The translations under genes and the position numbers were made by a program. Below the pieces are notes generated by a model. That model saw nothing but the letters and a program-made list of their open reading frames with translations. It was not told where the DNA came from and did not search any database. This document shows, piece by piece, positions 42,157 to 48,736 of a stretch of DNA of 64,000 nucleotides; position 1 is the stretch's first letter; every line of letters begins with the position of its first letter. Source of the stretch: Runella sp. CRIBMP (GTDB lineage Bacteria > Bacteroidota > Bacteroidia > Cytophagales > Spirosomataceae); contig NZ_JAAAKZ010000002.1 of NCBI RefSeq assembly GCF_009905605.1, positions 496,001 to 560,000 on the forward strand, read 5' to 3'.

Positions 42157-42206
42157 TACATAAATGAATACAGACCCTTACAGAAACAAAGTTTTAATCC
42201 AAACAT

Positions 42207-42239
42207 AAAACCCCGAAAGCGTCGAACTTTCGGGGTTTT
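42207..42239. terminator. Bidirectional terminator
   Basis: AAAACCCCGAAAG (42207-42219) pairs perfectly with 42227-42239 over 13 bp, with a 7-base loop. The A run on one side and T run on the other let it serve both the DUF4249 gene (+) and the convergent coiled-coil membrane protein gene (-). Confidence 0.92.
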
Positions 42240-42264
42240 GATTTTATTCTATTTCTATTCAAAA

Positions 42265-43686
42265 CTACTCCTTCTCCCCATCCAAGCCATCCGTAATCAT
42301 CTTCCGAATCATCTGGTGCGGGCGCAGGCCGTTGGTGCGTTTTGTGCCGTTTCCATTGCCGTAATTCATGCTCCGGTCGGCGGAAGAAGAGGCTTTTACG
42401 GCCAAATTATGGGTATTGAGCATTGAGTTGCGAAATTGGGTAAACTCCTCCTCGTTCATCATTTCGCGGGCTATTTCTCCTTTGGCGTAGCCATCGTTGA
42501 AAGACGCGATGCGGCTGTCGGTCTGCGCCAAACGCGTAGATTCGATGAGCTGATCCAAATCATTGCGCATTTTGGTACGCTCAGCGCGCAAATCATCCAA
42601 GGTCTGAAACTGTTGAAGCTCATGCTCCAAAATATCTTTTTGTGTGGTTTGCTCGGCCAACTCTCTGTCGGCTTCCTCCAACTGTTTGTTTAATTTACGA
42701 CGACGACGGCTCAAACGCCACAGTCGTGGGTCGATTTGCAGCCACCGGTACCAAAAATTCTGCAACACAGGCAGCGCCATTCCGAGCGAAACCGCCCCCG
42801 CCAAAGCAAACAAAATACCACTCAACACAAACGACGCCAACGCCCAAGGGCTGTTGACAAGGCCCAGATTGAGTTCATCAGAACGCAAAAGCTGTTGTTC
42901 AATTTTTTGCAATAAAACCTGTTGTTCTTGTGGCGTAATCGTACTGTTGGGGTCGAGCGGCGTAGCGCCCAATTGAAGATTTTTGACCGATTTATTGATG
43001 GCTTCTTTCATTTTATCGGTACGGTAGGCCTCGTATCGAAACCATCCCAAAATCCCCAACGTGATAATGGCAAAACCCGCCAAGCCCACTTTAAACCAAG
43101 CATAACGCGTACGTGCTTTTTGGGTATGCTCATCCACATACGGCTTCTCAATCAGGCGGTCGTAGGCGGGTTTGAGCAAAATAGAAATCATGGCCAAACC
43201 AATGGCAAACGCCCACGCCTCATTGTTGTTGCGAATGTTGAGGGCGTAGGCAACAATTTCGTGCGATATAATAAGGTCACCAAACACAAATGCCGCCCCC
43301 GCAAAAAAGAAAAAGAAGCCTGCCAAGAGCGAATACTCCGATTGTGTTTGTTTACGCCGTGCCCGCAGGGCTTCGGTTTCGGCATCAACGGCATCCCGCT
43401 GCGCCGTCAGTTCTGTTACACGCTTGGTGGCTTTGATTACCCGTTGCACAAACTCTTGCAAACGGTCGTAAGCAGTTTTACGCTTTACGGCCGTTTCTTC
43501 AATCTCTTTATCAACCCGTTGGATTTCATTTCGACGGTCCTCAATCCGTTGGGCCAACCAATTATAATGTATCTGGCTTGAAAGATAACTTTCATATGGA
43601 TTACGATTTTCCGAGCCTTCAATACCGCTGTGGTAGCCGTGTTGAAAATCGGGTTCGTCTGTATGGTCTTTTGTTGGTTCCTGCAT
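42265..43686 (-). CDS. Large coiled-coil membrane protein of unknown function (second gene of pair)
   Basis: A 473-residue protein without recognised domains. An acidic N-terminal tail (1-30) is followed by a long charged coiled coil at about 43-115 (IEDRRNEIQRVDKEIEETAV). Membrane helices are at about 119-140 (LLAGFFFFFAGAAFVFGDLI), 157-172, 195-215 and 280-308. A second coiled coil covers about 322-385 (RRRRKLNKQLEEADRELAEQ). The tail is Asn/Gly-rich and basic. It lacks a signal peptide, so both coiled coils are probably cytoplasmic. The fourth helix follows a hydrophilic loop of about 65 residues. It starts 45 bp after the similarly built upstream gene. The coil-membrane-coil layout suggests a scaffold or membrane-shaping role, but no function is known. 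Confidence 0.75.
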   Translation of the reverse strand: MQEPTKDHTDEPDFQHGYHSGIEGSENRNPYESYLSSQIHYNWLAQRIEDRRNEIQRVDKEIEETAVKRKTAYDRLQEFVQRVIKATKRVTELTAQRDAVDAETEALRARRKQTQSEYSLLAGFFFFFAGAAFVFGDLIISHEIVAYALNIRNNNEAWAFAIGLAMISILLKPAYDRLIEKPYVDEHTQKARTRYAWFKVGLAGFAIITLGILGWFRYEAYRTDKMKEAINKSVKNLQLGATPLDPNSTITPQEQQVLLQKIEQQLLRSDELNLGLVNSPWALASFVLSGILFALAGAVSLGMALPVLQNFWYRWLQIDPRLWRLSRRRRKLNKQLEEADRELAEQTTQKDILEHELQQFQTLDDLRAERTKMRNDLDQLIESTRLAQTDSRIASFNDGYAKGEIAREMMNEEEFTQFRNSMLNTHNLAVKASSSADRSMNYGNGNGTKRTNGLRPHQMIRKMITDGLDGEKE

Positions 43687-43731
43687 GGCTTTCTTTTTTT
43701 AAAATCGTGCTACTTATTTTTTACCAAGTGC

Positions 43732-44904
43732 TTACTGCTGATTTTGGGCGGTTGATTGAATCGCCCTCATTTGTCGGTCTGTCAAACGGTCGCGCAGTTG
43801 GCGGGCCAGGTAAAATTCACTTTCAAACAGTTTGATGAGGGCATCACGTCGGGCATTCACGCGCGCAAGTTCGGCCTCTACCCGATTCAATTGCGGCACA
43901 ATCTGCCATTTTTGAATGCGTAATTCATCAATTTCGGCGTTCAAGCGGTTGGTTTCCTCGTCCCAAGTCTCTGTTTTGCTCGTTTTTTCTTTTTTCATGT
44001 TAGCACCCGTCAGCCAAATCCGTAAATCATTGCGAAGTACGGTGATATTGCTCAACAGCAATTTGCCCGCAAAAAGAAACAGAAAAAACACAAAGACAAA
44101 CAACGCCACCGCCCGCCAAACGGTCTGATTTTGCAATGCTTGTACAAACACAAACATGGCTGCTGCAAAAGGCATACCAACCTCCTCTAACAACCTGCGC
44201 CATGACACACTGCTGTCGGTATCGTGAAAAAGTGAAACCCGACCGAACAAATTAAACATCCCTGCCAAAAACACCCCAACGGCTATCCACTGACTATTAG
44301 GATATAAAGGGCGCAAAGTATCATCAATCAAAAAGAAATTTCCTATGCACATCGCCATCGAAAACACCAAGCCTACGATAGTTCGCGGCAACTGATGTTC
44401 TCCTTCATTTTGGCGGGCATCCAGCTCGGCAGCTTTATCTTTAAATTCGTTGATTCTGGTTTCTTTTTGCCCAATAAACAAATTTAATTCCTGAATTTTT
44501 TCACCATAACGCTCCACATCTAACTCTAAATCAGCGGTTTGATGCACGAAATAACTGCGAATGATGGCTACTTTCTCTTCAGGCTTTGACTCTGAAAGTC
44601 CAAAAATAACTCCTTCATCCCGTAGCAAAGTTTCATCTTCCAACCACGATGGCAACTCAATGGGAATTGAAGTTTGTGTGGGTTGAGGCGGTGTTAAATC
44701 CCACGTATGGGTAGAGGCGGGAGTCTCTTCGGTCATGACCCGCGTTTGTGGAACGATTCCAGGCAAGGCAGGCACAGAAACATCGGCCGTTACCTTCTTG
44801 GTTTCGACTTGTGGTGGGTCTAACTCCGCAAAAGACACCAATTCGGGGTCTTTGCTGAAGTTATCGGGGCTAAAATAGGCTTTGATTCGATCAAAGAGGC
44901 TCAT
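43732..44904 (-). CDS. Coiled-coil membrane protein of unknown function (first gene of pair)
   Basis: A 390-residue protein, not recognised. The N-terminal about 90 residues are Pro/Thr/Val-rich and likely disordered, ending in the conserved-looking IELPSWLEDETLL. A coiled coil lies at about 124-165 (LDVERYGEKIQELNLFIGQK). Membrane helices follow at about 174-193, 205-223, 243-258 and 262-286 (VWRAVALFVFVFFLFLFAGK). A second coiled coil covers about 312-358 (TNRLNAEIDELRIQKWQIVP) and ends near a Gln-rich tail. The layout mirrors the downstream protein although the sequences differ. The two genes form a closed unit between the aspS terminator and the bidirectional terminator at 42.2 kb. Confidence 0.75.
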   Translation of the reverse strand: MSLFDRIKAYFSPDNFSKDPELVSFAELDPPQVETKKVTADVSVPALPGIVPQTRVMTEETPASTHTWDLTPPQPTQTSIPIELPSWLEDETLLRDEGVIFGLSESKPEEKVAIIRSYFVHQTADLELDVERYGEKIQELNLFIGQKETRINEFKDKAAELDARQNEGEHQLPRTIVGLVFSMAMCIGNFFLIDDTLRPLYPNSQWIAVGVFLAGMFNLFGRVSLFHDTDSSVSWRRLLEEVGMPFAAAMFVFVQALQNQTVWRAVALFVFVFFLFLFAGKLLLSNITVLRNDLRIWLTGANMKKEKTSKTETWDEETNRLNAEIDELRIQKWQIVPQLNRVEAELARVNARRDALIKLFESEFYLARQLRDRLTDRQMRAIQSTAQNQQ

Positions 44905-45035
44905 AGTAGGTGCATTTGGGCTGTTAAAACGAACGTTTTATAAACTTGAAGTTCAACAAAATTATTGTACTTCTCCCCAAAAATGGGACGAAAGGTGCAA
45001 TTTATGACGCAGAGTATCATTTTTAATCTTTAAAT

Positions 45036-45069
45036 AAAAAAACTCCACACCAAAAATGTGGAGTTTTTT
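45036..45069 (-). terminator. aspS terminator
   Basis: AACTCCACA (45041-45049) pairs with TGTGGAGTT (45057-45065), with A/T runs on both sides that extend the stem. It lies 25 bp after the aspS stop on the minus strand. Confidence 0.9.
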
Positions 45070-48163: not shown

Positions 48164-48736
48164 TTATTCATCATCCACTTTTACATGTTTCCAGTTTTCG
48201 CCAGAACGGATACGGTTGAGTTGTGTGTGCGTTATCCCAAACTGTTTGGCAATCATCTTCAATCTGCTCTTGTCACTTTTGAGCATTTTTTTGATCATTC
48301 TGACTTTGATTTCGGTCAGCTTGTAGTTGCGGGTACGAGCAGGAAGCTTACGATTTATAACGGCTGGGTTTTCACGGTTATGTTCCACCATTTCTGTCTT
48401 GGTTACCCATTTCAGATTGTCGGCACGGTTGTTTTGTTTATCAAAATCAAGGTGAATGACGTATTTATGCAATTCACTTTCGCGTTTTAGGAACAATTCA
48501 GCCACCAATTTATGAACATATCTATTGATGGTTTTTCCACCTGTGATACGAATATTGAGCGAACGATACCCCTGAATCACCGATCCTTTAATAATAACCG
48601 CTTTTTTCTCCTCGTTTTGAAAACTTCTCAGGCGTCCATAGTTAGAGACATCATACCGAGGTGGGTTTTCCACTCCCTCAAACTCGACAGGCACCCACTT
48701 TTCGTTCCAATAACTAAGCACTTTTTTGTCGCTCAT
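48164..48736 (-). CDS. NUMOD4-HNH homing-type endonuclease
   Basis: A 190-residue free-standing endonuclease-like protein. NUMOD4 DNA-binding motif at about 13-38 (EKWVPVEFEGVENPPRYDVS, then NYGRLRSF). The HNH_3 nuclease core follows at about 70-110: the VHKLVAELFL helix, the catalytic-position His in YVIHLDFDKQNN, then RADNLKWVTKTEM with the Asn. A C-terminal helix-turn-helix is at about 140-185 (KMIAKQFGITHTQLNRIRSG). These are the building blocks of phage and intron homing endonucleases. Here it is not inside an intron; it sits between moaA and a CoA-binding protein gene. It may be a selfish element or a domesticated nuclease. No flanking direct repeats were recognised. Confidence 0.88.
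   Translation of the reverse strand: MSDKKVLSYWNEKWVPVEFEGVENPPRYDVSNYGRLRSFQNEEKKAVIIKGSVIQGYRSLNIRITGGKTINRYVHKLVAELFLKRESELHKYVIHLDFDKQNNRADNLKWVTKTEMVEHNRENPAVINRKLPARTRNYKLTEIKVRMIKKMLKSDKSRLKMIAKQFGITHTQLNRIRSGENWKHVKVDDE

What the first reader, a model, noticed from the sequence alone, without database searches (positions are those of the whole stretch)
42265..44904. Closed two-gene unit of mirrored coiled-coil membrane proteins of unknown function
Both proteins have the same rare layout: charged coiled coil, four membrane helices, second charged coiled coil, no signal peptide. They share no obvious sequence with each other and match no family I recognise. The genes lie 45 bp apart, bounded by a terminator on each side, so they form a self-contained module. 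The symmetry suggests a heteromeric membrane scaffold, with the coils possibly joining it to cytoplasmic partners. This is the best candidate in the window for an undescribed system.
Basis: partly seen in the sequence, partly recalled or inferred. Interest (0 to 1): 0.68.

Follow-up and report, generated by a model that had tools for sequence, protein, structure and literature searches.

The report
Three-part bacterial membrane protein system
Two unstudied membrane genes in a Runella bacterium turn out to be two thirds of a conserved three-gene set whose third member, a lipoprotein gene elsewhere in the genome, points to an undescribed complex spanning the cell membrane.

Summary
In detail: two adjacent minus-strand genes, A (43732-44904, 390 aa) and B (42265-43686, 473 aa), 45 bp apart, terminators on both sides, each helix / four TM / helix, no curated family. 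The reading as a closed two-gene module does not hold. B is the core: of 150 family genomes B is in 127, A in 116, never without B. In Rhodothermia and other Cytophagales families B is followed by a lipoprotein gene with a von Willebrand A-like (MIDAS) motif: 5 of 5 Rhodothermia loci (as A-B-VWA), 13 of 15 other Cytophagales loci (one as A-B-VWA). In Spirosomataceae that gene has moved away but goes with B: 87 both, 2 B only, 0 VWA only, 12 neither of 101; one further genome contradicts. Best reading: an envelope complex of B, the lipoprotein outside and, often, A, with cytoplasmic helical stalks and conserved tips. In two Rhodothermia genera the trio sits between a CRISPR array and type III cas genes; the own genome has no Cas10 match, so CRISPR is not required. 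The physical complex is inferred; AlphaFold models were too poor to test it. Function is open.

The parts
43732..44904 (-). Gene A, 390 aa: N-terminal helix and linker, conserved motif, helix, 4 TM, helix, conserved tip
44587..44658 (-). A residues 83-106, motif PxWLxDExLLRDEGVxFGL, most conserved part of A
   Evidence: (0.75), invariant columns
44389..44586 (-). A first long helix (107-172)
   Evidence: segment bounds as
44047..44382 (-). A four TM segments (175-286)
   Evidence: bounds as
43834..44046 (-). A second long helix (287-357)
   Evidence: bounds as
43789..43833 (-). A C-terminal tip motif FESEFxLAR (358-372)
   Evidence: (0.71)
42265..43686 (-). Gene B, 473 aa: core protein of the system
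43582..43650 (-). B N-terminal tip motif (13-35), [FY]xxG[YF]xxG in most members
   Evidence: G17 and G21 invariant in 25 sequences
43336..43581 (-). B first coiled coil (36-117)
43162..43335 (-). B TM1, extracytoplasmic loop 1, TM2 (118-175)
   Evidence: bounds as
43219..43278 (-). B loop 1 (137-156) DLIISHEIVAYALNIRN, proposed docking site for the VWA-like lipoprotein (inference)
   Evidence: (0.80), D137 and V145 invariant
43039..43095 (-). B TM3 (198-216)
42847..43038 (-). B loop 3 (217-280), predicted extracytoplasmic
42769..42846 (-). B TM4 (281-306)
42517..42768 (-). B second coiled coil (307-390)
42457..42516 (-). B C-terminal tip motif (391-410), DGYxxG type, echo of the N-terminal tip
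   Evidence: G399 invariant, G403 at least 90%
42289..42330 (-). B C-terminal motif RPHQxIRK (453-466)
42206..42240 (.). Terminator hairpin downstream of B, with T-runs on both strands
45036..45069 (-). Hairpin with T-run after aspS, upstream boundary of the A-B unit
44957..44964 (-). Possible Bacteroidota -7 element TAnnTTTG upstream of A (weak: seen in 3 of 6 Runella loci, the three closest; consensus recalled)

Best explanation
A and B are two parts of a three-protein envelope complex; the third part is a VWA-like lipoprotein (in this genome at G000:C1 about 471423-472124, outside the window). B is the core: four TM helices, a highly conserved extracytoplasmic loop (GDLIISHEIVAYALNI) and two cytoplasmic coiled coils of similar length that probably run side by side as a stalk, ending in a repeated GYxxG-type tip motif. 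The lipoprotein, anchored outside, probably binds B through its MIDAS-like site and an acidic residue of B's conserved loop. A, of the same layout, is a frequent but dispensable addition that probably joins B in the membrane and presents its own conserved cytoplasmic tips. The complex would couple an extracytoplasmic state to a cytoplasmic partner held at the tips. Shown: genes, helix layout, conservation, co-occurrence and linkage. Inferred: the physical complex, topology, docking site, and a sensing or tethering role.
For: Linkage: A-B-VWA in 5 of 5 Rhodothermia loci and in one locus of another Cytophagales family; B-VWA adjacent in 13 of 15 B-positive genomes of other Cytophagales families. 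Co-occurrence in the own family: 87 both, 2 B only, 0 VWA only, 12 neither of 101; by genus 29, 1, 0, 6. VWA in 15 of 15 B-positive and 0 of 12 B-negative same-order genomes (the 12 were taken from the head of the B-negative list, not at random). Invariant cysteine and MIDAS-type columns. Loop 1, TM2 and TM4 are B's most conserved parts. Tip motifs at both ends. A never occurs without B in 150 genomes.
Against: Co-occurrence counts are not phylogenetically independent: 7 of the 12 double absences are one genus (g13), and 10 of 12 are genomes of 2.2-3.2 Mb. G128, the only family genome outside the 101 that I tested for VWA, has VWA but no B match, in a 90% complete assembly; G033 and G067 have B but no VWA (87% and 71% complete). 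In the own family the gene is not linked to B except loosely in 2 of 87 genomes. The VWA label rests on motif columns: 1 of 23 members hits a Pfam VWA model, below cut-off (E=0.032), and no credible PDB match. AlphaFold2 models of A and B have mean pLDDT 57 and 58 with the TM regions unresolved. If the lipoprotein is exported to the outer membrane it could not touch B. No functional data.
Confidence: 0.55

Rival explanations
1. One reading: A and B alone form a closed heteromeric membrane scaffold, with coils joining it to cytoplasmic partners.
For: A directly upstream of B in 24 of 26 loci, matched layout, weak profile similarity over TM4 and the second helix.
Against: B persists without A in 11 of 127 family genomes and without adjacent A in 14 of 15 other Cytophagales loci, while the VWA-like gene accompanies B in 87 of 89 family genomes, 15 of 15 other Cytophagales and 5 of 5 Rhodothermia.
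Confidence: 0.12
2. A membrane effector of type III CRISPR immunity: a second messenger or Cas10 signal opens or damages the membrane through A-B-VWA.
For: In two R. marinus plasmids the trio lies between csm1-5 with a ring nuclease and csx2/csm6/cas6/cas1/cas2, just after a CRISPR array (same plasmid as L100); in G456 it lies between an array and a Cas10-RAMP operon. Known type III membrane effectors exist (PMC11229360, passages read).
Against: Cas10 model matches in only 22 of 150 family genomes and not in the own genome, and the same model also rings in the E. coli control, so 22 may be an overcount, against B in 127; among the ORFs listed for two other Rhodothermia loci (G207, G245) I recognised no cas gene by eye (not scanned); no CARF, SAVED or other nucleotide sensor in Pfam scans of the window proteins and of the G456 trio.
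Confidence: 0.12
3. An ion-conducting channel or stator-like motor (MotA/ExbB/ZorA- or MCU-like) with the conserved GDLIISHE loop as pore or ion site.
For: Conserved acidic and basic residues beside TM1-TM2 and in TM regions; coil-TM-coil layout recalls MCU (recalled).
Against: No MotA/ExbB or channel family among the hits of the window proteins, nor among the 25 of 63 families shown for 25 B members (weak hits there include AGTRAP in 10 members, best E=0.0055, and single hits to Sulf_transp); no solved relative beyond coil-type hits; fold unresolved.
Confidence: 0.1
4. Shared retention only: A-B and the VWA gene do separate jobs that larger genomes of these lineages tend to keep.
For: 10 of the 12 double absences are small genomes of 2.2-3.2 Mb; in the own family the genes are mostly unlinked.
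Against: B-VWA adjacency in six other families of two classes (f60, f71, f75; f14, f32, f36); G021 lacks both in a one-contig 5.4 Mb genome, while five f75 genomes of 2.6-3.1 Mb keep both.
Confidence: 0.1

Closest known systems
Type III CRISPR membrane effectors (Cam1, Csx23, CorA-type, Cam2, Cam3)
   Same: Membrane proteins found beside type III cas genes; the trios of two Rhodothermia genera lie in such loci
   Different: Most of those are described in PMC11229360 as having a messenger-binding part or a known or predicted messenger (passages); here Pfam shows no such domain, there is a lipoprotein partner, and most carriers show no Cas10 match
VWA-based envelope systems such as Bat/MoxR-VWA and Ter (recalled)
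   Same: A VWA-type protein at the envelope; in 3 genomes of one genus a TerD gene and in 2 of them a BatD-like gene flank B-VWA
   Different: No MoxR ATPase among the neighbours scanned; TerD and BatD-like genes were not seen at the other loci laid out; the lipoprotein misses Pfam VWA cut-offs
Stator or channel families MotA/ExbB/ZorA, MCU (recalled)
   Same: TM bundle with cytoplasmic helices
   Different: No match of A or B to such families in Pfam, NCBIfam, PADLOC or PDB profile searches

Membership tests
Type III CRISPR ancillary membrane effector | encoded with, or in a genome with, Cas10 | tested here: not met
   own genome has no PF22335 match; 22 of 150 family genomes do. Met in 2 Rhodothermia genera
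Type III CRISPR ancillary membrane effector | CARF, SAVED or other second-messenger sensor domain | tested here: not met
   no such Pfam hit in A or B of the window or in A, B and lipoprotein of G456
Type III CRISPR ancillary membrane effector | activated by cOA or SAM-AMP, contributes to immunity | not testable with these tools
   bench work
VWA domain (third component) | MIDAS residues DxSxS, T, D | tested here: met
   columns in 23 sequences: D 23, S or T 23, S 22 and T 1, T 22 and S 1, D 23; which column is which MIDAS position is my assignment
VWA domain (third component) | Pfam VWA model above curated cut-off | tested here: not met
   1 of 23 members, E=0.032, 15.3 of 27 bits
VWA domain (third component) | Rossmann-like VWA fold | not tested
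Bacterial lipoprotein (third component) | signal peptide ending in a lipobox cysteine | tested here: met
   Cys invariant in 23 of 23 after a hydrophobic N-terminus (read by eye); 2 of 23 hit the Pfam lipoprotein site model weakly, best E=0.12
MotA/ExbB/ZorA stators | family profile match | tested here: not met
   no match of A or B in Pfam, NCBIfam or PADLOC at E up to 1
Ter / MoxR-VWA stress systems | TerD, TerC or MoxR partners | tested here: inconclusive
   TerD in 3 genomes of one genus only; no MoxR among the neighbours scanned, and not all neighbours were scanned

The most novel reading that the evidence does not exclude
A previously undescribed transmembrane signalling or tethering machine, B plus a MIDAS lipoprotein with optional A, that is near-core in Spirosomataceae and has been captured by type III CRISPR loci in Rhodothermia as a membrane-acting arm of immunity.
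Probability: 0.25. Interest if true: 0.8.

Novelty: categorically new. Interest (0 to 1): 0.6.

Why it matters
It turns two orphan genes into a defined three-gene system with a predictable partner in another part of the genome, kept through most of a bacterial family and found at type III CRISPR loci in two genera of another class. That gives direct, cheap tests (do B and the lipoprotein bind; do they share a phenotype; does the Rhodothermus trio affect type III immunity) of what an otherwise invisible envelope complex does.

Tried and rejected
CRISPR as the general function: rejected for Runella because Cas10 has no match in the own genome and matches in only 22 of 150 family genomes; where B and a Cas10 match share a contig the nearest pair in the tables is about 0.22 Mb apart (G095). 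Plasmid or phage cargo: B matches only two Rhodothermus marinus plasmids, the lipoprotein the same two; B has no match in phages and a two-pattern scan of viral contigs found no relative. Rv2743c-, SMC-, UvrB- and AGTRAP-type hits: below cut-offs or coil noise. Neighbouring genes as fixed partners: in the own family a psi-like (HolD-type) gene family occurs at 13 of 26 laid-out loci, directly upstream of A in 7, and not at the six Runella loci; beyond B-VWA the neighbours vary. Fold searches were not run because both models have unresolved TM regions. Literature: ten full-text searches listed no paper that I could recognise as describing these genes; I read passages of PMC12419801, PMC7854544 and PMC11229360 (12 of 20 places shown) and saw the rest, Csx23 (PMC11014256) included, only in search listings. 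Phyla outside Bacteroidota (with Rhodothermia as grouped there by the genome collection) were not surveyed by profile; the one scan of 84,980 species finds close relatives only and gave five loci, all Runella.
Full report
WHAT IS THERE. The window lies in a 7.13 Mb genome whose close relatives are Runella, family Spirosomataceae, order Cytophagales. Two minus-strand genes stand alone between aspS and a convergent gene: A (44904-43732, 390 aa) and B (43686-42265, 473 aa), 45 bp apart, with hairpin terminators on both sides. Each has a long helix, four TM segments and a second long helix. With no signal peptide and the helices taken as cytoplasmic, B has two extracytoplasmic loops: loop 1 (about 137-156) and loop 3 (about 217-280) (topology inferred). 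Heptad periodicity is clear for B and not significant for A. Neither protein reaches a curated cut-off in Pfam or NCBIfam, and PADLOC, PHROGs and PDB profile searches give only coil-type noise. A and B compared as profiles align over TM4 and the second helix with 82% probability, so a distant common origin is possible but coil bias could explain it.

DISTRIBUTION OF A AND B. In 150 genomes sampled from the family, B is in 127 (115 of 134 good genomes) and A in 116 (105 of 134). Comparing the two lists, no genome has A without B and 11 have B without A; five of these (G043, G046, G079, G106, G108) were re-searched with the A profile and none has A. Both are single copy in the own genome. In the 26 loci first laid out (the window, five Runella loci and 20 chosen to cover genera) A is directly upstream of B in 24, separated by one gene in one, and missing in one; two g36 loci fetched later also have a gene between. 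In a phylum-wide sample B is in 9 of 395 genomes, all in this family or in the class of G152, where it is in 5 of 117. That class is Rhodothermia: contig 2 of G157, from the same genus as G152, has the length of R. marinus plasmid pRMAR01 (125133 bp) and its lipoprotein is 100% identical. The genome collection counts this class in the same phylum as the window; NCBI puts it in its own phylum Rhodothermota. An order-wide sample gives 59 of 311, including 15 genomes of four other families (f60, f64, f71, f75). B is thus patchy outside Spirosomataceae.

THE THIRD GENE. In all five Rhodothermia loci the order is A, B, then a lipoprotein gene. Its alignment shows an invariant lipobox-type cysteine and the residues of a MIDAS site: D-x-[ST]-x-[ST] with D in 23 of 23 sequences, T in 22 of 23 and the third-loop D in 23 of 23. 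Pfam VWA models do not reach cut-off (one of 23 members at E=0.032), so 'VWA-like' is a motif-level assignment. A profile of it finds a homologue in 87 of 101 family genomes (one each, two fragments in G097). In the own genome it lies on contig 1, 471423-472124, while A-B is on contig 12. Going through the tables, in 85 of the 87 it is on another contig than B or about 0.1 Mb or more away; in two g36 genomes (G052, G065) it is within about 6 kb on the same strand with other genes between. No A or B lies within the 20 loci of up to 20 kb fetched around it. Against the B list for the same 101 genomes: both 87, B only 2 (G033 and G067, 87% and 71% complete), VWA only 0, neither 12 (Fisher p 7.6e-14 by genome, 3.6e-6 by genus for 29, 1, 0, 6; not corrected for relatedness; 7 of the 12 are genus g13). 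One family genome outside the 101 was tested, G128, chosen because it lacks B: it has VWA, which goes against the rule. In the 15 B-positive genomes of other Cytophagales families the VWA-like gene is present in 15 and directly downstream of B in 13; one exception is unlinked (G567) and in the other B lies near a contig end (G664). It is absent from 12 B-negative same-order genomes, taken from the head of the list. In one of the 15 loci (f71, L154) A is also present, giving A-B-VWA; in the other 14 no A is seen beside B, though L165 has under 1 kb of upstream sequence. Whether A lies elsewhere in those 14 genomes was not searched. In Rhodothermia a sixth genome matches the VWA profile only at E=0.0035, probably chance.

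ANATOMY AND MECHANISM. Conservation across 25 B sequences peaks at TM2 (0.84), loop 1 (0.80) and TM4 (0.80), against 0.39 and 0.46 for the coils. GDLIISHEIVAYALNI is exact in 16 of 25; D137 and V145 are invariant in the 25, E143 in the 22 of alignment A3, while two of the 25 have D there. Both ends of B carry a motif of the kind [FY]xxG[YF]xxG just outside the coils; a strict form occurs twice in 16 of 25, and G17, G21 and G399 are invariant. Since the N-terminal coil runs towards the membrane and the C-terminal coil away from it, and they have similar length, I infer a side-by-side stalk with both motifs at its distal tip. A has an equivalent pair of conserved ends (PxWLxDExLLRDEGVxFGL and FESEFxLAR). 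The lipoprotein is the natural extracytoplasmic partner, and MIDAS sites bind acidic ligands (established knowledge), which makes loop 1 of B the likeliest docking site. This gives a membrane-crossing complex that could report or hold an envelope state to a cytoplasmic partner. The partner, the signal and the direction are unknown. AlphaFold2 with the permitted six Runella sequences gave mean pLDDT 58 (B) and 57 (A), confident coils and unresolved TM regions, so neither stalk packing nor any interface is shown.

CRISPR CONTEXT. In R. marinus plasmids pRMAR01 and pRHOM17201 the trio lies between csm1-5 plus a ring nuclease on one side and csx2, csm6, csx2, cas6, cas2 and cas1 on the other, with 3 bp between the lipoprotein gene and csx2. 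L100 (pRMAR01) has an array of at least 11 repeats just upstream of A, and L099 (a relative, on a large contig) one of 8. In G456 (another family) an array of 7 repeats lies upstream of A, and a Cas10 (PF22335) followed by RAMP genes comes after the lipoprotein gene. Two genera thus place the trio at a type III locus; at the other two Rhodothermia loci (G207, G245) I recognised no cas gene by eye among the ORFs listed (not scanned). In the own family the Cas10 model matches in 22 of 150 genomes and not in the own one; it also rings in the E. coli control, so some of the 22 may be false. The system therefore does not depend on type III CRISPR; capture by, or occasional use in, such loci is the cautious reading. 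The frequency of Cas10 in Rhodothermia at large was not measured. PMC11229360, which catalogues type III effectors, has no occurrence of 'Rhodothermus', 'coiled' or 'Willebrand' in its main text.

OTHER NEIGHBOURS. In three genomes of one f75 genus B-VWA is followed by a GDSL/LysM protein and a TerD gene, and in two of them preceded by a BatD-like gene (Pfam on L162, the others by similarity); a fourth genome of that genus (L163) has other neighbours. In G567 B is followed by a response regulator with a PglZ domain. These hint at envelope stress but do not repeat across lineages.

VERDICT. Observation confirmed; interpretation partly supported. The pair is real and undescribed in the libraries and papers searched, but it is best described as part of a three-component B-VWA(-A) envelope system. 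I rate system membership of the lipoprotein as likely (about 0.85), direct B-lipoprotein contact as plausible (about 0.6), and a specific role (stress sensing, tethering or defence) as open.

Noticed in passing
L073:10722-11336, L079:8806-9402 and others: A small gene with a DNA polymerase III psi (HolD)-like C-terminus (Pfam PF03603, E=9e-7 in L079; no hit in L073) occurs at 13 of 26 family loci, directly upstream of A in 7; in L073 it lies in a relA-fur-purA context that is not at the Runella loci.
   Followed up: partly
L184 (G065) and L185 (G052), genus g36: The VWA-like gene lies about 5-6 kb from A-B on the same strand, downstream in one and upstream in the other, and a gene separates A and B: loose linkage, perhaps a stage of dispersal.
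   Followed up: partly
L083:9533-10108: In G094 (genus g28) a gene of about 190 aa with pentapeptide-repeat look (by eye) lies between A and B.
   Followed up: no
G063:C1:220814-220897 and G095:C4:4808808-4808960: Short second matches to the last 29-53 residues of B about 3 and 6 kb downstream of B, one with stops: perhaps remnants of a partial duplication.
   Followed up: no
L162, L164, L165: B-VWA followed by GDSL/LysM lipase and TerD; BatD-like gene upstream in L162 and L164.
   Followed up: partly
L153:10867-12432: Response regulator with PglZ domain (PorX-like, name recalled) directly after B in G567; a similar protein also lies within L066.
   Followed up: partly
L072:8381-9112 and other g9 genomes: A is shortened (open frames of about 230-280 aa) and lacks part of the TM region, while B and the VWA-like gene are kept.
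   Followed up: partly
L158 (G640): B copy with an in-frame stop in a fragmented assembly with 7% contamination; VWA-like gene follows.
   Followed up: no
window 48164-48736: 190 aa ORF that looks like a NUMOD4/HNH homing endonuclease beside a radical-SAM-like gene (both recalled from the sequence, no call beyond the ORF list).
   Followed up: no
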